A stretch of 64,000 nucleotides of DNA from NCBI RefSeq assembly GCF_000022325.1, contig NC_012034.1, forward strand, positions 2,045,501 to 2,109,500. Reading direction: 5' to 3'. Under the pieces are notes generated by a model that saw only the letters and a program-made list of their open reading frames with translations, did no database searches and had not been told where the DNA came from. Source of the DNA: Caldicellulosiruptor bescii DSM 6725. Lineage in GTDB: Bacteria > Bacillota > Thermoanaerobacteria > Caldicellulosiruptorales > Caldicellulosiruptoraceae. Within the stretch, counting starts at the first letter, position 1; each line of letters begins with the position of its first letter. Below, one piece after another: positions 29,749 to 37,532 of this stretch. Position numbers and translations under genes: made by a program.

Positions 29749-31440
29749 TCAAATTTCTACAATACTTCCATTCTGAAACCTTAAAATTTTATCTGCTATT
29801 GATAACGTAGAAGCTTTATGAGTTATTACAAGAATTAATGAATTTTTCTGTTTTAATTTAACGATTGAGTTCAGAATTATTTCTTCTGTCTCAGGATCAA
29901 GGAAAGATGTCGGCTCATCTAGTATTACAATTTTAGGTTTTCTTAGTAATATTCTTGCAAGTGCTATACGTTGAGCCTCACCTAAGGATATTTGTGCTCC
30001 GCGAATACCAATATCAATATTTAGCCCCTTTGGATCTCTAGCAATTAAATCAGTAAGTCCAGCTTCAGCAATAACTTTTTTTACATCATCTAATGAGTAA
30101 TTGTCATTTCCAAGGGTTACATTTTCATATAATGTACCATTAATTATAAATGCATTTTGTAGTAAAAATCCAACATTTTTTCTGAAGTCTTCTATGTTAA
30201 TTTCTTCGATATTAACTCCATCTATCAAAATTTCCCCCACTTGAGGTTTGAGTAATCTTGAAACAATTCTTGCAAATGTGCTTTTACCTGAACCACTCTT
30301 TCCTGTTAATGCAACAATACATCCTGGTTTAAGAATTAGATTTACATTATTAAGAACTGGATAATTGTTTTCATAAGCAAAAAAAACATTTCGCATTTCT
30401 AAAGTTTCCTCAAATCTAAATGGCTTATTACCACCTTTTTCTATTAAAACAAACGGACTTTTATAATACTCTTCAAATCTTAGATAAGCAACTTTCAATT
30501 CTTGGCAGCTTAACACAATACCGGTCATTGAGACGATTGGTTGATATAAAAGTCCTGCAAGTATATAAAATCCCATAAAGGTTCCAACAGTTATCTTACC
30601 TGAAAATACAAGATTTGCCCCAAACCATAAAGTACCAAATGACCACAATTGGTTCAACAAACTGGTTCCTGTTTGATACATTGATTGAATAAATACTAAT
30701 TTAACGATAGCATAAATAAGATTCTTCATATTGTGGCTTACCCTTTCAAAAGCTATTTTTTCTAAACTTAAAGTTTTAATTAACTCTATTGCATTGAAAT
30801 GCTCGTTAATTTCTGAAACAGTATTTTGTTCTATATTTTTTTTATTAAATACTGCTTTCTTTACTGGTTCTCTAAACCTCACTATAAGTATGACCTGGAA
30901 CATAAATACTATTACTACTAATGACATTAAAATAGGTGACCACTTATACATTAAATACAAAATCAATACTACCCAAATTGTATACATTGGCATATTAATA
31001 ATCAATTTCAAAAAATAATCTACCATAAATTCGGTATCATAAAACATTCTGTACTGGATTTCACCACTTTTTTTAGACATATGAAATACCAATGATGTGT
31101 GTTGAAGTTTATTAAAAAAATCCATTTTGATTCTGTAATTTAAAAAAGCAGTTAATCTTGCCATTAAATAGCTATTTAAAAGGTTTATAGTTGCAATTAT
31201 AACAAATGCTAAGCTCATTAAAATTAACAATCTTATTAATAAATTCTTGTCGTGAGCAGCAAATATTCTATCAACAAGCATTTTACTTATTGTTGGAGAT
31301 ATTAGATTCGATATTGCTAATAAAGATGAAAACAACAATACTAAAAAGATCTGAAACTTATATCCCTTAACATAAGGAAACATAGTTTTTAAATATTCAA
31401 CAAAAACTTTTTTAGCTAATTTTTCTCCAATACATCTCAT
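29749..31440 (-). CDS. ABC exporter (membrane plus ATPase fused), likely RiPP export
   Basis: About 563 residues: six membrane helices (residues 15-310) and a nucleotide-binding domain with Walker A GKSGSGKST, Q-loop FLLQNAFIINGT, Walker B IVILDEPTSFLDPE and H-loop VITHKAST. The signature is ISLGEAQRIALARILL, in which the usual LSGGQ is replaced by SLGEAQ. No C39 peptidase domain is present, so leader removal must be done by another protein. It is the last gene of the RiPP-like operon; I take ATG at 31438-31440 (after GAGTGAG), with TTG at 31446 as alternative. Peptide export is inferred from context. Confidence 0.85.
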   Translation of the reverse strand: MRCIGEKLAKKVFVEYLKTMFPYVKGYKFQIFLVLLFSSLLAISNLISPTISKMLVDRIFAAHDKNLLIRLLILMSLAFVIIATINLLNSYLMARLTAFLNYRIKMDFFNKLQHTSLVFHMSKKSGEIQYRMFYDTEFMVDYFLKLIINMPMYTIWVVLILYLMYKWSPILMSLVVIVFMFQVILIVRFREPVKKAVFNKKNIEQNTVSEINEHFNAIELIKTLSLEKIAFERVSHNMKNLIYAIVKLVFIQSMYQTGTSLLNQLWSFGTLWFGANLVFSGKITVGTFMGFYILAGLLYQPIVSMTGIVLSCQELKVAYLRFEEYYKSPFVLIEKGGNKPFRFEETLEMRNVFFAYENNYPVLNNVNLILKPGCIVALTGKSGSGKSTFARIVSRLLKPQVGEILIDGVNIEEINIEDFRKNVGFLLQNAFIINGTLYENVTLGNDNYSLDDVKKVIAEAGLTDLIARDPKGLNIDIGIRGAQISLGEAQRIALARILLRKPKIVILDEPTSFLDPETEEIILNSIVKLKQKNSLILVITHKASTLSIADKILRFQNGSIVEI

Positions 31441-31442
31441 AT

Positions 31443-32018
31443 TCAACTCACTCTTTCTATAACTGTTTTCCCATCAGTATAGTAAATTAAAGAGTAATCA
31501 TCTTTACTATATTCGCAAATTGTGTAATAAGGTTGCCAGAGATAATATTTTAAAAATTTGCAATTATTTGCACTCGATGTTTTGACTATAATTTGACCAA
31601 TAGTAAACATTTCTGGAATAAATATATACAATCTTTTCATATTACATGAAGTTAAATTTTCGTATAAATTCTTTAATAAAAATAAGATCTGAAGCTTATC
31701 ATATACCTTACCTGTAAACCACAAACACTTTTCTTTATAATAATTCTCTTCTACTAAAATCTTGCCTGGCGTCGTATAAGTAATATTAATTATTTTTTTA
31801 TCCTGTCCATATTCTTTTTTAGTATGAGCTGAAAGAGGCAAATAATTATTCCCATTTATAATTAACCTTGTTTCTTCGATACCTAAAAGAGTTTCAATCT
31901 TTGAATCAAAAAATATATGTTGATCATTTTGAAACTTGAGGTTAATAAATTGTCTACCAATTTTATGTCCTTGATTATAGATTATATAATTGTAACTTAC
32001 ATTTCTCAAAAGTATCAC
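31443..32018 (-). CDS. Unrecognised protein of the RiPP-like operon
   Basis: 191 residues, no family recognised. It is rich in Tyr, Ile, Asn and Lys, has no clear signal peptide or membrane helix, and looks beta-rich (RLIINGNNYLPLSAHTKKEYG; IINITYTTPGKILVEENYYK). The GTG start overlaps the stop of the protease gene (GTGA), and its end nearly touches the exporter gene, so coupled translation is likely. Possible accessory, immunity or binding role; function is unknown. Confidence 0.6.
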   Translation of the reverse strand: MILLRNVSYNYIIYNQGHKIGRQFINLKFQNDQHIFFDSKIETLLGIEETRLIINGNNYLPLSAHTKKEYGQDKKIINITYTTPGKILVEENYYKEKCLWFTGKVYDKLQILFLLKNLYENLTSCNMKRLYIFIPEMFTIGQIIVKTSSANNCKFLKYYLWQPYYTICEYSKDDYSLIYYTDGKTVIERVS

Positions 32019-32740
32019 CCCAAAGTTCGTATTTTATTAAGTATAATATTTACAAATAAAATTACAAATATTGCAGGCCAAAACATTAATAAAAATTCAT
32101 CCATTTTCTCATTTATTATGCGAATCTTCAGCTGATACAAAAAAGCACTTATGTTCACTGCTGTATGTAACAAAATAGCAAAAACTAAATTTAAAAAAGA
32201 AAAACTTTTTATATCTTTCTTCAAGCCAGTTAGTGCTACAACTGTGAGTCCAGTATGAATTATAACACAAAGAAACATCTCAGTTGCAAAACCACCAAAA
32301 TAATAAAACGAATATCCTGCCATAGAAGGATTTTTTGAAATACCAAAGGCAATATACCATATCTCACCAATACCAAATCCAAAACCTAAAATATAGGCAA
32401 TCCTTAGTAAAGTTTTTGAATCAACATTATAAAGTTTTAGAAAAAAAGAAGGTAGAATTTTTATTATTTCTTCTGTTATACTTGGGAGAAATAGGAAAAT
32501 TATTAGATATCCAACGGGAGCTTTTAAAGTTGTATTTCCATGAACATTAAAAACCTCTTTTAAAATCTTAAGTAATGGAGCTTTCACTAATAAATTTACA
32601 ATTGGACAACTCAAAGCACTTATTACACCTAAAAAAATATATTTATCAAGTTTTTCAAAAAAGTAATAGTAAATAAACCCACCCCAAAATACAAAAGCCA
32701 TTAATGTAGAGATAAAAGCTGCAATATAAATGGAATACAC
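32015..32740 (-). CDS. PrsW-like intramembrane protease
   Basis: 241 residues with about seven membrane helices. The diagnostic glutamate pair is seen at residues 90-91 (FLPSITEEIIKILPSFF), followed by ILGFGFGIGEIWYIAFG and later histidines in IIHTGLTVVALTG and AILLHTAVNISAF. These E..., E and H positions match the PrsW/CPBP-type glutamic intramembrane proteases. In this operon it may cut the leader from the modified peptide or confer immunity, as membrane proteases do in the YydF system. The GTG start follows GGAGGAATAGGA. Confidence 0.72.
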   Translation of the reverse strand: MYSIYIAAFISTLMAFVFWGGFIYYYFFEKLDKYIFLGVISALSCPIVNLLVKAPLLKILKEVFNVHGNTTLKAPVGYLIIFLFLPSITEEIIKILPSFFLKLYNVDSKTLLRIAYILGFGFGIGEIWYIAFGISKNPSMAGYSFYYFGGFATEMFLCVIIHTGLTVVALTGLKKDIKSFSFLNLVFAILLHTAVNISAFLYQLKIRIINEKMDEFLLMFWPAIFVILFVNIILNKIRTLG

Positions 32741-32752
32741 TCCTATTCCTCC

Positions 32753-33295
32753 CTAATTCAAACCTGCCTTTTCAATTAAAATATTTTTAAATTCTTCCAA
32801 ATTCTTGGGAGTAATCCCTACCTTCTCACCGTTTTTTAAATAGATTACCAAAATATTTTTGTTTACTCTTGTTGCACACATATATATATAACCCATACCA
32901 AAATAATACACTTTACCTATTGCATAGCCTGGCACTTTAAAAACACTTTGAGTATCTGCAAGAAAATTGGCTTTTAAATTTTCAATAGTTACTTTTTCTA
33001 TTTGGTTATAATAAATTGTTTTTTTGTGCCATCCACATTTTAATATTAACTGGTCTGGATTTAATTTATAATTCATAGTGAAGAAAAAAATAGTATATAA
33101 TATTCCTAAGACTGCAATCAAACAACTTAATATAGATGTGATTAATACTGACACAAAAATATAAGTCTTTTGAGGTAGTCCCTTTACTATAAGTAGGTAT
33201 ACGCATAATAAAAACACAAAAAATGTCAACATGAAAATATGGAAAGGGAATAACCATCCCCATGAATATGAAGGTTTCATTTTTATATAATTCAT
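32753..33295 (-). CDS. Membrane protein with bacterial PH domain
   Basis: 180 residues. Two N-terminal membrane helices (FPFHIFMLTFFVFLLCVYLLIV and TYIFVSVLITSILSCLIAVLG-type) precede a domain of about 100 residues: MNYKLNPDQLILKCGWHKKTI, then YNQIEKVTIENLKAN, and the C-terminal NILVIYLKNGEKVGITPKNLEEF. The ending is typical of bacterial PH domains of the bPH type. Role in the RiPP operon is unknown; immunity or membrane scaffolding is possible. The ATG has AGGAGG 11 bp upstream. Confidence 0.7.
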   Translation of the reverse strand: MNYIKMKPSYSWGWLFPFHIFMLTFFVFLLCVYLLIVKGLPQKTYIFVSVLITSILSCLIAVLGILYTIFFFTMNYKLNPDQLILKCGWHKKTIYYNQIEKVTIENLKANFLADTQSVFKVPGYAIGKVYYFGMGYIYMCATRVNKNILVIYLKNGEKVGITPKNLEEFKNILIEKAGLN

Positions 33296-33451
33296 TGTTC
33301 CAATTATCCTCCTATACTTTTTATTTTTATTAATTACAGAAACTGCTACTTTGAATTTTTAAAAGAAAAATTCTAAAAGTACTTCAAACAAAGATTTTCT
33401 TCGTATAAAAAATTAAATGGCCGACATACTCCTTTTGCTTCTTTTGTAATA

Positions 33452-33685
33452 TCAACATTTGTGTGAAACATTAACATAGTAAGCCGCATTTACTACGGCA
33501 GCCGCATTTACTACGGCAGCTGCATTTACAGCCAATCCTGCATTATTTTGTACAAAAACAGCAGTAAAATAAACTGCCACAAATCCGGCAGCTACTGCTA
33601 AAATAGGTGCAGTTACTACACAAGTCATTGTAGGTTGAACATCTGAGGCTGGCGAAATTGTAGGTGATTCATATACTTTATTCAT
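33452..33685 (-). CDS. Putative RiPP precursor peptide with Asn-every-six core
   Basis: 77 residues. The leader MNKVYESPTISPASDVQPT holds Y5-x-x-P8-x-I10, the YxxP pattern that RRE domains recognise in lasso-peptide leaders. Residues 20-77 are almost only Ala, Val, Asn, Phe, Tyr. Asn occurs at 48, 54, 60, 66 and 72, exactly six apart, and NAAAVV is repeated. Cys22 and the C-terminal Cys77 flank the core. The ribosome site GAGGGGGG is strong, which fits high expression. It follows the RRE gene by 18 bp. The peptide's chemical fate is inferred, not shown. Confidence 0.8.
   Translation of the reverse strand: MNKVYESPTISPASDVQPTMTCVVTAPILAVAAGFVAVYFTAVFVQNNAGLAVNAAAVVNAAAVVNAAYYVNVSHKC
33483..33536 (-). 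repeat. 18-bp tandem repeats encoding the NAAAVV units
   Basis: Two identical 18-bp units (33483-33500 and 33501-33518) and a third diverged copy (33519-33536) lie in frame in the precursor gene. Each unit encodes six residues, so repeat number changes the length of the core without a frameshift. Confidence 0.85.
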
Positions 33686-33703: not shown

Positions 33704-34540
33704 TTACTTTTTGATATCAAAGTGAAAAATTATAATATCAGGAGTATGTCGGCCGAGTTCTTCTTTTAAGATACCAGCATATCTGAAATTCCATTTTTCA
33801 AGTTTTTCAAATAATATTTCATTGTCATTTTTTAAGCAAAAGAACAATCTTCTAATATCACGCAGGAGATAATTAATTTCACTCATTTTTTTAACACACC
33901 ATTGAAGAAATTTCATAATTATTTCTAATTCAACGGAATAATCTTCACAATAAAAATATCCAACTGTAGCTGAATTAACTTCTACTTTTAAAAGAGGAGA
34001 AAATGAAATAGTTAAAACATTCTTTCCATCCACAGTTAACGAAAAAAACATTTCCATAAACATAAACACTCTCTGTCGTAGTAACATCTCAGCATAATAT
34101 ACATTTTCGTCAATATAAGGATTAACAAAGTGTGGTGACTCTCTTAATCTTTGCAATACATCTATTACTTCATCTTCATATAACATTTTAAAAACACAAT
34201 TTTCACATCTTTCTTGATAAAAAAGATTAAGTAGAGGGTTTTCATTGAGCCATCTTATTAGACCAAATCTCCATAAACTGTGCAATATGTTAATAACATC
34301 TTCTATCACTCTTTCTTTGGTTGCACCTTTATATTCTTTTAATATTTCGTTCACAATTTCACCTATAGTATGATAACCATCACATTTGTCTAAAATAAAT
34401 CTTGCTGTTTCATTTAGCTTCATTTGCTGAGTTTCTGGATGCTTTTTGCTCAAAAATGTAAGACTACCATCTTGTTCTAACCTTTTATAAAGAAGATTCT
34501 GCTCATCAAACTTCGGAATACTTTTCATAATATCTATCAT
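33704..34540 (-). CDS. PqqD/RRE-domain protein (RiPP recognition)
   Basis: 278 residues. Residues about 18-100 look like a PqqD-like RRE winged-helix: GSLTFLSKKHPETQQMKLNE, TARFILDKCDGYHTIGEIV, then NILHSLWRFGLIRW. The rest is unrecognised, with an ERCENC pair of cysteines near residue 116. RRE domains bind the leader of RiPP precursors and deliver it to the modifying enzyme. The gene lies between the radical SAM gene (2-bp gap) and the precursor. The ATG follows AAGGAGGAG. Confidence 0.75.
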   Translation of the reverse strand: MIDIMKSIPKFDEQNLLYKRLEQDGSLTFLSKKHPETQQMKLNETARFILDKCDGYHTIGEIVNEILKEYKGATKERVIEDVINILHSLWRFGLIRWLNENPLLNLFYQERCENCVFKMLYEDEVIDVLQRLRESPHFVNPYIDENVYYAEMLLRQRVFMFMEMFFSLTVDGKNVLTISFSPLLKVEVNSATVGYFYCEDYSVELEIIMKFLQWCVKKMSEINYLLRDIRRLFFCLKNDNEILFEKLEKWNFRYAGILKEELGRHTPDIIIFHFDIKK

Positions 34541-34542
34541 CT

Positions 34543-35934
34543 TTAGCTCCTCCTTACCATAATAAAATTATCAAACACTAACGGCTCAATAAAATTTAGT
34601 AACATCTCGTAATTTTTAAAATCATATAACAATTCCTTTAAGCTTATCTCTTTAAAATTAAAAATTTTCTGCAAAGCATTAATCTGCAATGGCTCAAGTT
34701 CATATTCTTTTCTGTATACTCCACCTTGTTCATAATACCTTGCTAAAGATACTTTTTGATTTTGAATCGTCAACAATGTATTATCTCTAATTGAAAGATA
34801 ATACTCATCAAAATGTCTTCTAATCAAATTAAATATTTCTTTTATTTTTCCCTTAGCTCTTGAACACCTTATTGAGATTTCTTCCTTAAATTGCTGTTGT
34901 ATAATGTTTACTGGACAAGGCCTACAATCCTCTTTGTAATAACATTCACGACAAACATGAGGCCTATTTTCTTTTATCAAATTTTCTAACTGAATTTTAA
35001 AGTTTTCCAACTTGTTGATTTTCTCTTCATTCAAAATTTTATCAAGAATATTTATACGTGGAAATTCTCCAACATCATTTATCTTGTCTAAAAGAGCTAC
35101 ACAAGGAACTATATCGCCATTTGGCAAAAGAGAGTAGTGTTCTTTTAATATACCGCATTTTGGTATTACTGGACAAAAGTCAGAGCCAAACAAGCAATTA
35201 TAGTACACTGCCTCAGTTGGAAATAACGATTTAGATGTAAGATAATATTTTTTATCTTTTAATTTTAAATAATTTTCTAATATTACATCCCATATCTGTA
35301 TGAATTCATCCGAAGATAGTAATAAATCACTATTGTTTTTTGCATTCCCATCTAAAGAAAGTCCACCAATCACAAGAATATCAATTGGCAGACGATTAAA
35401 AAATTCAGGTACGTGAGCAGCTTCATTTTTATTCTTTCTATTTAGTGACATTTGAATTCCAATGATAATTTGCCTTTTATATTCCATTATATTTTTCAGA
35501 TTACCTAATGCTCTTAATACCTGATCTAAGTTTCCTTCACCCCTAATGTAATCGTTTGAATCTTTCGTAATACCTTCTATGCTAATACTGATAGTCCCAA
35601 CACCACTAGATACAATTTTTTCAGCAAACAAAGTATTTTGTAATAATGTTCCATTAGTGACCAATTCCGTATGTATTCCTTTCACATTACAATAAAAAAT
35701 AAGCTTATCAATATCTTTATACATTAAAGGTTCTTTCGATGAAAAAATTATTTCTTTTATTCCGCAATCACTTAATATATCAACAACAACTTTAGCTGTC
35801 TCAAAATCCATTTCCTTATATTTATCTAACTTTGATCCTACAAAACAATGACGACAATTTAGATTACATTTTGGTTCTATTTCCCATCTGATATTTGTAA
35901 TTTGTATTTTTCCATCCATACTTGTCACCTTCAA
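34543..35934 (-). CDS. Radical SAM/SPASM peptide maturase
   Basis: 463 residues. The N-terminal CNLNCRHCF motif (Cys23, 27, 30) binds the SAM iron-sulfur cluster. A SPASM region follows with LLPNGDIVPCVALL and the cysteine-rich CRECYYKEDCRPCP, suggesting auxiliary clusters. Residues about 385-463 form an extra C-terminal domain (YELEPLQINALQKIFNFKE) that may be another winged-helix/RRE. SPASM enzymes modify ribosomal peptides by thioether, C-C or epimerisation chemistry; which applies is not known. The start overlaps the GNAT gene's stop by 4 bp. Confidence 0.85.
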   Translation of the reverse strand: MKVTSMDGKIQITNIRWEIEPKCNLNCRHCFVGSKLDKYKEMDFETAKVVVDILSDCGIKEIIFSSKEPLMYKDIDKLIFYCNVKGIHTELVTNGTLLQNTLFAEKIVSSGVGTISISIEGITKDSNDYIRGEGNLDQVLRALGNLKNIMEYKRQIIIGIQMSLNRKNKNEAAHVPEFFNRLPIDILVIGGLSLDGNAKNNSDLLLSSDEFIQIWDVILENYLKLKDKKYYLTSKSLFPTEAVYYNCLFGSDFCPVIPKCGILKEHYSLLPNGDIVPCVALLDKINDVGEFPRINILDKILNEEKINKLENFKIQLENLIKENRPHVCRECYYKEDCRPCPVNIIQQQFKEEISIRCSRAKGKIKEIFNLIRRHFDEYYLSIRDNTLLTIQNQKVSLARYYEQGGVYRKEYELEPLQINALQKIFNFKEISLKELLYDFKNYEMLLNFIEPLVFDNFIMVRRS

Positions 35935-36428
35935 TTTATAAAATACGAATATATTAATAAGTCCGCATCATCGAACTCTTCTTTTAATTCAATTTCTTTC
36001 TTAAATCCAATATCATTCATCAATTTTAACAACGATTTTAAATTTGACATATTACTTTTTATATTGATTTTAATTTTACTTATATCAGGAAATACCTTTG
36101 TCAAGTTCAAGATTGAATTATATAAAAACATATTTATTGGTGTGCTTGTATTCTCACATCCTAACAAATACAATGTCGCACTCTTTGACAAAGTTGCTAC
36201 ATCAGGTAATTGATAATATGCAATTTTACTCAGTTTTTCGTCAATAAACTCACCATATACAAAAATTGTACAATTGAAAAAACTTTCTCTTAATATGAGT
36301 TCATTAAATGTGTGTTTGCTTATGAAAGGATTCAAATAATTAAAATTCTCTTCAAAGTTTACTCTCCTGAGAATCTCAATTATTTCATTGATATCAGAAT
36401 CAGTAAGAATTCTTTCTTGAATTTTCAT
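35931..36428 (-). CDS. GNAT-like protein of the RiPP operon
   Basis: About 165 residues from the ATG at 36426-36428, which follows GGAGGG. The shape fits a GNAT acetyltransferase: N-terminal MKIQERILTDSDINEIIEIL and a C-terminal LMNDIGFKKEIELKEEF followed by DADLLIYSY, as in the last strands of the fold. The acetyl-CoA loop is weak, so catalysis is uncertain. It could acylate the peptide or act as an immunity factor. A longer frame to 36515 overlaps the radical SAM gene and has no ribosome site. Confidence 0.6.
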   Translation of the reverse strand: MKIQERILTDSDINEIIEILRRVNFEENFNYLNPFISKHTFNELILRESFFNCTIFVYGEFIDEKLSKIAYYQLPDVATLSKSATLYLLGCENTSTPINMFLYNSILNLTKVFPDISKIKINIKSNMSNLKSLLKLMNDIGFKKEIELKEEFDDADLLIYSYFIN

Positions 36429-36453
36429 CTTTATTTTGTCCCTCCAAAAATTA

Positions 36454-37494
36454 CTAATTTTTTGCGAAAAATTGTTCTGGCTTAACTTCTGAAATATAAT
36501 CTTCAATAAGGTCAATATCTACACTCTTTTCCCAATAAACCTCTTTAAATCCTTTGGAAGAAAGATCCAAATCTTCTGTAGCTCTAATTTGCTTCGAAAT
36601 CCACTTAACAATTGGTAAACTCCAAACATTTGACAAACCACTATTCCAATACTCTAAAATTGTATGTCTTCTTATATTTCCAAAAGTCAATGGTAAATAA
36701 GGAGATATTCTCAAATATCCATATGCATCTATTCCTATAAATGGATTATAACCACTTTCTCTATAGTTCGATCTTATAAGGTGATCTACCGGATCTCCCC
36801 ATTCTACATTCATTCCTTTCTTTGCTATTTGTTGCATTTGTAACTGTTTTAGCTTTGTTGCAAGAATTTGATAATCTCTATAGGTTGGAATATACCCATT
36901 TAAATTTCTCTTCGCTCTTCCCATTACCATTAGAGGCTGAACGCGAAATTCACAAACACCTAATTGCTCGCATAATTTTATCGCTTCATCAATTTCTGGA
37001 ATATTTTTTAAAGTTGGTGTATAAGCAACACCAACGTATAACCCAGCTTCCACAAGACTTTTTATAGCATTGACAGCCTTGTTAAAACTTCCTATCTTAT
37101 TTCGAAGCCAATCATGTGTTTCAGGTTTTGCACCATCAAGGCTAACCTGAACAAGATTAAATCCGGCTTTCCGTAAATTTCTTGCTACCTCATTATTTAC
37201 TAATTCACCATTTGTAACTACATTCACTTTTGTATATCCATTTGTTCTCTTGACTATTTTTTCACAACACAAATAGAGAATTTCTCTTCTAATAAGTGGT
37301 TCACCACCACAAAAACAAATGACATTGGGCATTATATCAACAATTTGATCTGCTAAATAAAGTAATTCTTCATCTGTTAATTCTGGTTCTAATTCATTTT
37401 CATTACTTCCGTTGAAACAATGTAAACACCTCATCGTACACTTGTAGGTAACATCGATTGACATTATTAACGGTTTAGGTACATTACAATTCAC
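36454..37494 (-). CDS. Radical SAM enzyme, SPASM-like C-terminus without cysteine ligands
   Basis: About 346 residues from GTG at 37492-37494 (after AAAGGAG). The cluster motif is YKCTMRCLHCF (Cys19, 23, 26), then CFCGGEPLIRREI and VSLDGAKPETHDWLR. At the position of a SPASM domain it reads GYLRISPYLPLTFGNIRR: the GNI segment is kept but the usual cysteines are absent. It is the first gene of the RiPP operon. Peptide epimerases of the PoyD/YydG type also belong to radical SAM families; that this enzyme makes D-residues is inference from the precursor pattern. Confidence 0.82.
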   Translation of the reverse strand: MNCNVPKPLIMSIDVTYKCTMRCLHCFNGSNENELEPELTDEELLYLADQIVDIMPNVICFCGGEPLIRREILYLCCEKIVKRTNGYTKVNVVTNGELVNNEVARNLRKAGFNLVQVSLDGAKPETHDWLRNKIGSFNKAVNAIKSLVEAGLYVGVAYTPTLKNIPEIDEAIKLCEQLGVCEFRVQPLMVMGRAKRNLNGYIPTYRDYQILATKLKQLQMQQIAKKGMNVEWGDPVDHLIRSNYRESGYNPFIGIDAYGYLRISPYLPLTFGNIRRHTILEYWNSGLSNVWSLPIVKWISKQIRATEDLDLSSKGFKEVYWEKSVDIDLIEDYISEVKPEQFFAKN

Positions 37495-37512
37495 AAAAAT
37501 CTCTCCTTTCCT

Positions 37513-37532
37513 CACCAAATAATTATTTGGTG
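37513..37532. promoter_or_regulatory. Perfect 20-bp palindrome upstream of the RiPP operon
   Basis: CACCAAATAA followed directly by its reverse complement TTATTTGGTG, ending 3-10 bp before the ribosome site of the first gene. It can be an operator for a dimeric repressor, or an mRNA hairpin touching the AAAGGAG site. Confidence 0.6.

What the first reader, a model, noticed from the sequence alone, without database searches (positions are those of the whole stretch)
33452..33685. Precursor core with Asn exactly every six residues, as in polytheonamide beta-helices
Seen: Asn48, 54, 60, 66, 72 in an Ala/Val-rich core. Known: in polytheonamide-type peptides alternating D/L residues form a beta-helix of about six residues per turn, and D-Asn residues six apart form a stacked ladder. 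Inferred: this peptide may be epimerised to a pore-forming or membrane-spanning beta-helix. Unlike proteusins, it has no nitrile-hydratase-like leader; it has a short YxxPxI leader instead. This would be a new route to a similar shape.
Basis: partly seen in the sequence, partly recalled or inferred. Interest (0 to 1): 0.88.

Follow-up and report, generated by a model that had tools for sequence, protein, structure and literature searches.

The report
New peptide family with asparagine ladder
A heat-loving bacterium carries genes for a small, greasy, enzyme-modified peptide whose asparagines recur every six residues; distant relatives show the same spacing, and one sits beside an asparagine-methylating enzyme like those that build coiled membrane-channel peptides, which suggests a separate route to such channels.

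Summary
In detail: the minus-strand ORF 33452-33685 encodes a 77-aa peptide with Asn at 48, 54, 60, 66 and 72. Part of the ladder is a recent 18-bp tandem duplication, and the nearest ortholog lacks it.

Homologs nevertheless support the idea. The operon (single-cluster radical SAM enzyme, PqqD-GNAT fusion, YxxP-leader hydrophobic precursor, ABC exporter) defines a RiPP family found in thermophilic Bacillota, Clostridia, Enterococcus, Collinsella and Gracilibacteria. No NCBIfam model covers its precursors. In distant members the six-residue spacing reappears without an exact DNA repeat: Gracilibacteria (4 Asn) and Enterococcus (8 Asn, all one parity). Without the window, lag-6 Asn pairs are 8 observed against 1.9 expected.

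The Enterococcus operon also encodes a methyltransferase whose best solved-structure match is 7RC2 (AerE, I believe: the D-Asn N-methyltransferase of aeronamide). Plasmid homologs of that enzyme sit beside YydG-like epimerases and strictly parity-ruled Asn cores.

Most likely the radical SAM enzyme epimerises alternate residues, giving a membrane-spanning D/L beta-helix. It is not a proteusin: leader and PoyD tests failed. Epimerisation itself is inferred. The reading is much stronger for the Enterococcus member than for the window, whose operon has no methyltransferase.

The parts
33452..33685 (-). Precursor peptide, 77 aa
   Evidence: ORF; ortholog in G006; equivalent hydrophobic YxxP peptides beside the same enzymes in other clusters
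33656..33673 (-). Leader motif YESPTI (YxxPxI), presumed PqqD/RRE recognition sequence
   Evidence: Sequence; YxxP motif in most homologous precursors; YxxP as RRE recognition sequence in PMC12710340
33470..33544 (-). Asn ladder N48-N54-N60-N66-N72
   Evidence: Translation; shuffle test
33482..33520 (-). Exact 18-bp tandem duplication (codons 56-61 = 62-67) that adds one six-residue unit
33704..34540 (-). PqqD (RRE) fused to a GNAT-fold domain, 278 aa; presumed leader-binding partner
   Evidence: Pfam PqqD 1.9e-13; AlphaFold model pLDDT 83.6 with C-terminal domain matching RimJ/RimL GNAT structures
34543..35934 (-). Second radical SAM/SPASM enzyme, 463 aa
   Evidence: Pfam Radical_SAM 1.2e-22, SPASM 4.3e-5; counterpart in G006, G012 and T. 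saccharolyticum
35931..36515 (-). 194-aa protein of unknown family (GNAT-like by eye only)
   Evidence: No Pfam or NCBIfam match; counterparts in G006, G012 and L025
36454..37518 (-). Family-defining radical SAM enzyme, 354 aa, proposed peptide epimerase; only the radical SAM cluster, invariant extra Cys68 and Cys70
   Evidence: Pfam Radical_SAM 2.7e-25; invariant columns over 14 homologs; model pLDDT 80.6; nearest solved folds SkfB, SuiB, PqqE, EpeE
32753..33295 (-). Membrane protein with bacterial PH domain; possible immunity or processing
   Evidence: Pfam bPH_5 1.3e-20
32015..32740 (-). YhfC-type intramembrane metalloprotease; possible leader peptidase
   Evidence: Pfam YhfC 9.6e-7; also in L026
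31443..32018 (-). 191-aa protein of unknown function in the same operon
   Evidence: ORF overlaps of 4 nt with both neighbours
29749..31446 (-). ABC exporter, 565 aa, no C39 peptidase domain reported
   Evidence: Pfam ABC_membrane and ABC_tran
33740..33754 (-). 5' arm of a 15-bp inverted repeat around the precursor gene (inside the end of the PqqD-GNAT gene)
   Evidence: pairing kept in G006 by a compensatory change; RNA folds
33419..33433 (-). 3' arm of the same inverted repeat

Best explanation
The locus is a RiPP operon of a family not described in the sources I could search. The PqqD half of the PqqD-GNAT fusion binds the YxxP leader and presents a 45-57-residue Ala/Val-rich core to the 354-aa radical SAM enzyme. 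That enzyme most likely abstracts alpha-hydrogens and returns them from the other side, with Cys68 or Cys70 as donor, so that alternate residues become D. The matured core would then wind into a beta-helix of about six residues per turn, long enough to span a membrane once. Asn residues six apart stack one above the other along the outside. In some relatives they are probably N-methylated by an AerE-like methyltransferase; in the window they would stay unmethylated. The second radical SAM/SPASM enzyme may tie down the two end cysteines. The peptide is released, perhaps by the YhfC protease, and exported by the ABC transporter as a membrane-active bacteriocin. Shown: operon, family, Asn spacing, methyltransferase and immunity-type neighbours in relatives. 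Inferred: epimerisation, beta-helix, channel activity.
For: (1) The six-residue Asn spacing recurs in homologs fetched by enzyme similarity: L032 (Gracilibacteria) N at i, +6, +12, +18 (3 pairs vs 0.23, P about 1e-4); L033 (Enterococcus) 5 pairs vs 1.26, P 7e-4, all 8 Asn of one parity, P 0.003; seven homologs together without the window 8 vs 1.86, none of 20,000 shuffles, and no pairs at lags 3, 5, 9 or 11, unlike an alpha-helix. (2) L033 has a PF05175 methyltransferase in the operon with NPPF motif whose best solved-structure match is 7RC2-7RC6, E 4e-12; L063 has a homolog beside its rSAM and PqqD-position genes, and Collinsella has one in the same island. PoyE and AerE are PF05175 (PMC9259500). 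(3) Plasmid homologs of that methyltransferase (Klebsiella pmk4, Thermus pTA14) lie with rSAMs whose best NCBIfam match is the YydG peptide epimerase, SdpI proteins and cores with every Asn on one parity. (4) The family rSAM has only C27/C31/C34 plus C68/C70 invariant, and the window protein has no cysteine in its C-terminal part; proteusin epimerases likewise have one cluster and one critical cysteine (PMC8326336). (5) Many family cores have no cysteine, which rules out thioethers as the common product. (6) SdpI, DUF1648 and DUF3784 membrane proteins recur. (7) In polytheonamide B methylated Asn 16, 22 and 28 form an H-bond chain outside the helix, and a six-residue insertion is one turn (PMC11285071).
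Against: No direct evidence of D-residues. Without L032 and L033 the other eight independent homologs show no lag-6 Asn pairs, only a weak polar-residue trend (6 vs 3.0, P 0.057; lag 8 is stronger, 7 vs 2.8, P 0.014). Several members (L028, L062, L025) have almost no Asn. L032's repeat has 13/18 DNA identity between adjacent units, so a decayed duplication is possible there too. The nearest ortholog lost the ladder. The window operon has no methyltransferase, and the rest of the genome was not searched for one. The best structural match of the rSAM is SkfB, a thioether former; EpeE scores lower (Z 17.2 vs 24.4). That 7RC2 is AerE is my recollection; the database names it only 'Methyltransferase family protein'.
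Confidence: 0.58

Rival explanations
1. The Asn spacing in this peptide is only a by-product of 18-bp slippage in an Ala/Val-rich core that tolerates any hydrophobic repeat; the product is an ordinary membrane-active RiPP with no beta-helix.
For: Codons 56-61 and 62-67 identical at 18/18 bases; ladder absent in the nearest ortholog; most family cores have few Asn.
Against: The same spacing recurs in L033 with no DNA repeat (best 9/18) and in L032 (13/18); N48-N54 and N66-N72 of the window are not explained by the exact repeat; the AerE-like methyltransferase in L033.
Confidence: 0.17
2. The radical SAM enzyme makes cross-links (Calpha thioether as in sactipeptides, or C-C/C-O links) in a hydrophobic core; the peptide is a sactipeptide-like or cyclophane bacteriocin.
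For: Best structural match is the sactisynthase SkfB; the window, G006 and T. saccharolyticum cores carry a Cys near each end and their operons hold a second rSAM/SPASM enzyme.
Against: Most family cores have no cysteine; no recurring aromatic-x-x motif across cores by eye; the family enzyme has no conserved auxiliary-cluster cysteines. A thioether made by the second enzyme would be compatible with the best explanation.
Confidence: 0.15
3. All-L transmembrane alpha-helical peptide bacteriocin in which the radical SAM enzyme only makes a minor change.
For: Core length and hydrophobicity suit a membrane helix; SdpI-like proteins are known as immunity to a membrane-active toxin (own knowledge).
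Against: Asn pairs fall at lags 6 and 8 with none at 3, 5 or 11 and no excess at 7, the wrong periods for an alpha-helix.
Confidence: 0.1

Closest known systems
Polytheonamide/aeronamide-type proteusins (PoyD/AerD epimerase, PoyE/AerE Asn N-methyltransferase)
   Same: Hydrophobic core of about 45-57 residues, polar C-terminal half, Asn every six residues (NX5N); single-cluster rSAM as likely epimerase; AerE-like methyltransferase in the Enterococcus relative
   Different: Short YxxP leader instead of a nitrile-hydratase-like leader; PqqD-GNAT fusion; rSAM not matched by the PoyD model; no methyltransferase in the window operon
Epipeptides (YydF/EpeX with epimerase YydG/EpeE)
   Same: Small Gram-positive peptide with rSAM, membrane protease and ABC transporter
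   Different: EpeE has two [4Fe-4S] clusters and makes few epimerisations; the window enzyme has no cysteines for a second cluster and the core is longer
Sactipeptides made by SkfB/AlbA-type enzymes
   Same: Closest solved fold of the rSAM (SkfB, Z 24.4)
   Different: No core cysteines in most members; PqqD is on a separate protein; no SPASM cluster ligands in the family enzyme
Lasso peptides
   Same: YxxP leader motif read by a PqqD-like RRE
   Different: No lasso cyclase or B2 protease in the operon; hydrophobic core without the ring-forming pattern

Membership tests
Proteusin | Nitrile-hydratase-like or Nif11-like long leader | tested here: not met
   Precursor has 0 NCBIfam and 0 Pfam matches at E 0.1 and about 20 residues of leader
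Proteusin | PoyD-family radical SAM epimerase (TIGR04517) | tested here: not met
   Genome search with TIGR04517 gives only an 11-bit match elsewhere in the genome, none at the operon
Polytheonamide-type proteusin | NX5N core motif | tested here: met
   N48, 54, 60, 66, 72, though partly by DNA duplication; the motif is named as the polytheonamide core motif in PMC9259500
Polytheonamide-type proteusin | Asn side-chain N-methyltransferase of the PoyE/AerE kind in the cluster | tested here: not met
   None in the window operon; present in the related L033 and L063 clusters
Polytheonamide-type proteusin | Alternating D/L residues and channel activity | not testable with these tools
   Needs expression, Marfey analysis and membrane assays
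Epipeptide | YydG-family enzyme (TIGR04078) | tested here: inconclusive
   Not among the best 25 of 72 NCBIfam matches of the window enzyme; only those 25 are shown
Epipeptide | Second [4Fe-4S] cluster in the epimerase | tested here: not met
   Only C27, C31, C34, C68 and C70 are invariant in 14 homologs; the window protein has no cysteine in its C-terminal part
Sactipeptide | Core cysteines linked to alpha-carbons by a SPASM rSAM with RRE | tested here: inconclusive
   Window core has two Cys and a second rSAM/SPASM enzyme, but most family members have neither
Lasso peptide | Asparagine-synthetase-like cyclase and B2 protease | tested here: not met
   No such gene among the nine operon proteins

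The most novel reading that the evidence does not exclude
A third, separate biosynthetic route (beside PoyD proteusins and the YydG-like clusters on Klebsiella and Thermus plasmids noticed here) to Asn-laddered D/L beta-helical channel peptides: short YxxP leader, PqqD-GNAT carrier and a new single-cluster radical SAM epimerase, spread sparsely over at least three phyla, with cores that grow one helical turn at a time by 18-bp duplication.
Probability: 0.45. Interest if true: 0.92.

Novelty: new variant of a known kind. Interest (0 to 1): 0.78.

Why it matters
If right, ribosomal beta-helical channel peptides would not be a peculiarity of proteusins but a shape reached by several unrelated leaders and radical SAM enzymes, including in culturable thermophiles and in gut bacteria. 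It would add a new peptide epimerase family without an auxiliary cluster, a compact leader system for making D/L peptides, and a direct test of how ladder spacing and helix pitch evolve: an 18-bp duplication adds exactly one turn.

Tried and rejected
The fused PqqD protein as query found nothing in genome contigs or plasmids; the precursor profile found nothing in viral contigs; single-sequence rSAM queries found no more relatives in viral contigs, and the window rSAM found none in phages. Further genome searches by order or class around G126, G333 and G286 gave no new members. L047 and L049 (G285, G286) passed the profile search weakly; I did not count them because their clusters showed no YxxP hydrophobic precursor. 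The precursor of L063 was not found (the contig begins near its ABC gene), so its methyltransferase cannot be tied to a core. Thioether chemistry as the common reaction was rejected because most cores lack cysteine. A cyclophane reading (aromatic next to Asn in L032 and L033) was rejected because the window ladder NAAAVVN has no aromatic. The poly-cyclopropylglycine RiPP (PMC9062424) was considered as another rSAM fate for Val-rich repeats, but its TVGG motif is absent here. Papers on C. bescii RiPPs (PMC4289311) list a lanthipeptide and a circularin-like cluster, not this one in the passages shown. In the structural comparison EpeE is listed but below SkfB; proteusin epimerases of the PoyD kind are not listed, which proves nothing.

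Full report
What is there. The window lies in a 2.92-Mb chromosome of a genome of three contigs; the size fits Caldicellulosiruptor bescii DSM 6725 from memory, which I did not verify. On the minus strand runs an operon: radical SAM enzyme of 354 aa (36454-37518), 194-aa protein (35931-36515), radical SAM/SPASM enzyme (34543-35934), PqqD-GNAT fusion (33704-34540), the 77-aa precursor (33452-33685), a bPH_5 membrane protein, a YhfC-type intramembrane protease, a 191-aa unknown and an ABC exporter.

Is the ladder more than chance? For the window peptide alone, four lag-6 Asn pairs against 0.47 expected, but codons 56-61 and 62-67 are identical over 18 bases, so the count is inflated by a duplication. 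The ortholog in G006 has enzymes 86-96% identical but a precursor only 62% identical, without the ladder.

The family. Profiles of the enzymes led to homologous clusters in the related genus G012, in G015, G017 and G018, Thermoanaerobacterium saccharolyticum, several Clostridia, Gracilibacteria, Enterococcus sp. PF1-24, two more Bacillota genomes and Collinsella aerofaciens. Where the contig reaches far enough, an Ala/Val-rich peptide, nearly always with a YxxP leader, lies beside the enzyme; one Clostridiales MAG has four in tandem. PqqD-like partners are present in nearly all, and the GNAT fold of the C-terminal domain was seen in the model of the window protein. None of the precursors tested has a significant NCBIfam match.

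Spacing in the homologs. L032 has Asn at i, i+6, i+12, i+18; L033 has eight core Asn, all on one parity, with five lag-6 pairs. Seven homologs without the window give 8 pairs against 1.86 (0 of 20,000 shuffles), and none at lags 3, 5, 9 and 11; three different automatic core definitions over ten homologs give the same result. The signal comes from L032 and L033; without them there is no Asn signal and only a weak one for N, D, Q, H together. L033 has no DNA repeat (best 9 of 18), L032 at most 13 of 18. So the ladder is a recurrent feature of part of the family, not a fixed one.

The methyltransferase link. The L033 operon continues, 22 nt after the PqqD-position gene, with a 463-aa protein with the Pfam domain PF05175. 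Its best solved-structure match by sequence is 7RC2-7RC6 (E 4e-12; next best 2e-6) with an NPPF amide-methyltransferase motif. I recall these entries as AerE; the database shows only a generic name. PoyE and AerE belong to PF05175 (PMC9259500), methylate Asn side chains, and in polytheonamide B the methylated Asn at 16, 22 and 28 form the outer hydrogen-bond chain (PMC11285071). The review states that AerE accepts only one configuration of Asn; the letter is lost in the held text, and D is my knowledge. L063 carries a homolog in the same place (27% identity), also matching 7RC2 best, and Collinsella has one in the same island.

A control from elsewhere. Searching plasmids with this methyltransferase found Klebsiella sp. 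PL-2018 pmk4 and Thermus aquaticus pTA14, each with a radical SAM gene, an SdpI protein, the methyltransferase and a long precursor. Their radical SAM proteins match the YydG peptide-epimerase model best (E about 1e-22, below its cut-off), and their cores have all 9 and all 17 Asn on one parity, with 7 and 13 lag-6 pairs (the core ends were chosen by eye). Thus this kind of methyltransferase travels with likely epimerases and parity-ruled Asn cores, which makes epimerisation the simplest reading of the Enterococcus cluster and, by homology of the enzyme, of the window. Not every homolog of the methyltransferase does so: one on a Rhizobium plasmid has no radical SAM gene annotated nearby.

The enzyme. 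In 14 homologs the only invariant cysteines are the three cluster ligands and C68, C70 just before the GGE motif. There are no conserved C-terminal cluster ligands. The model (pLDDT 80.6) matches SkfB best (Z 24.4), then SuiB, viperin-like enzymes, PqqE, and lower EpeE (Z 17.2); a shared fold does not settle the reaction. The PoyD model finds nothing at the operon. Proteusin epimerases also have one cluster and one essential cysteine (PMC8326336). Clusters that carry the second rSAM/SPASM enzyme (window, G006, T. saccharolyticum) are the ones whose cores have a Cys near each end, so that enzyme may form an additional link (inference; L032 also has end cysteines but its contig is truncated).

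How it would work, and limits. Leader binding by PqqD, epimerisation of alternate residues, folding into a six-per-turn helix, release and export; recurring SdpI, DUF1648 and DUF3784 proteins suggest self-protection against a membrane-active product. Polytheonamide B, 49 residues, is about 45 A long and spans a membrane singly (PMC8183687); the cores here are of similar length. Nothing here shows D-residues, a helix or a channel. The window lacks the methyltransferase, so for this particular peptide the case is weaker than for the Enterococcus one.

Noticed in passing
window 33419-33433 and 33740-33754: A perfect 15-bp inverted repeat encloses the precursor gene; in G006 (L017) both arms changed at the same position so that pairing is kept. 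The folded RNA closes the whole precursor transcript (z -4.9 and -2.7). Possibly an mRNA stability or processing element.
   Followed up: partly
L084 3053-5933 (Klebsiella sp. PL-2018 plasmid pmk4): Cluster with SdpI, long-leader precursor with all core Asn on one parity, YydG-like radical SAM and AerE-like methyltransferase, followed by a predicted lysine acyltransferase and exporter genes.
   Followed up: partly
L085 2302-5777 (Thermus aquaticus plasmid pTA14): Precursor whose core has 17 Asn, all of one parity, with YydG-like radical SAM, SdpI and AerE-like methyltransferase.
   Followed up: partly
L062 8452-9804 (-): B12-binding radical SAM enzyme directly upstream of the precursor in G333, possibly a C-methyltransferase as in polytheonamide clusters.
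   Followed up: partly
L028 9090-9776: Four tandem short YxxP precursors in one Clostridiales MAG, Ala/Val-rich and without Asn in the core.
   Followed up: no
window 34543-35934; L017; L025 10005-11318: Clusters with a second radical SAM/SPASM enzyme have a cysteine near each end of the core; most clusters without it do not.
   Followed up: partly
L066 2896-7050: A family radical SAM gene lies just after two recombinase-like ORFs (by eye) in a contig of the viral collection, which suggests carriage on a mobile element.
   Followed up: no
L076 10430-12545 (Collinsella aerofaciens plasmid 6): A weak radical SAM protein and an AerE-like methyltransferase form a second unit in the same island as the precursor cluster.
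   Followed up: no
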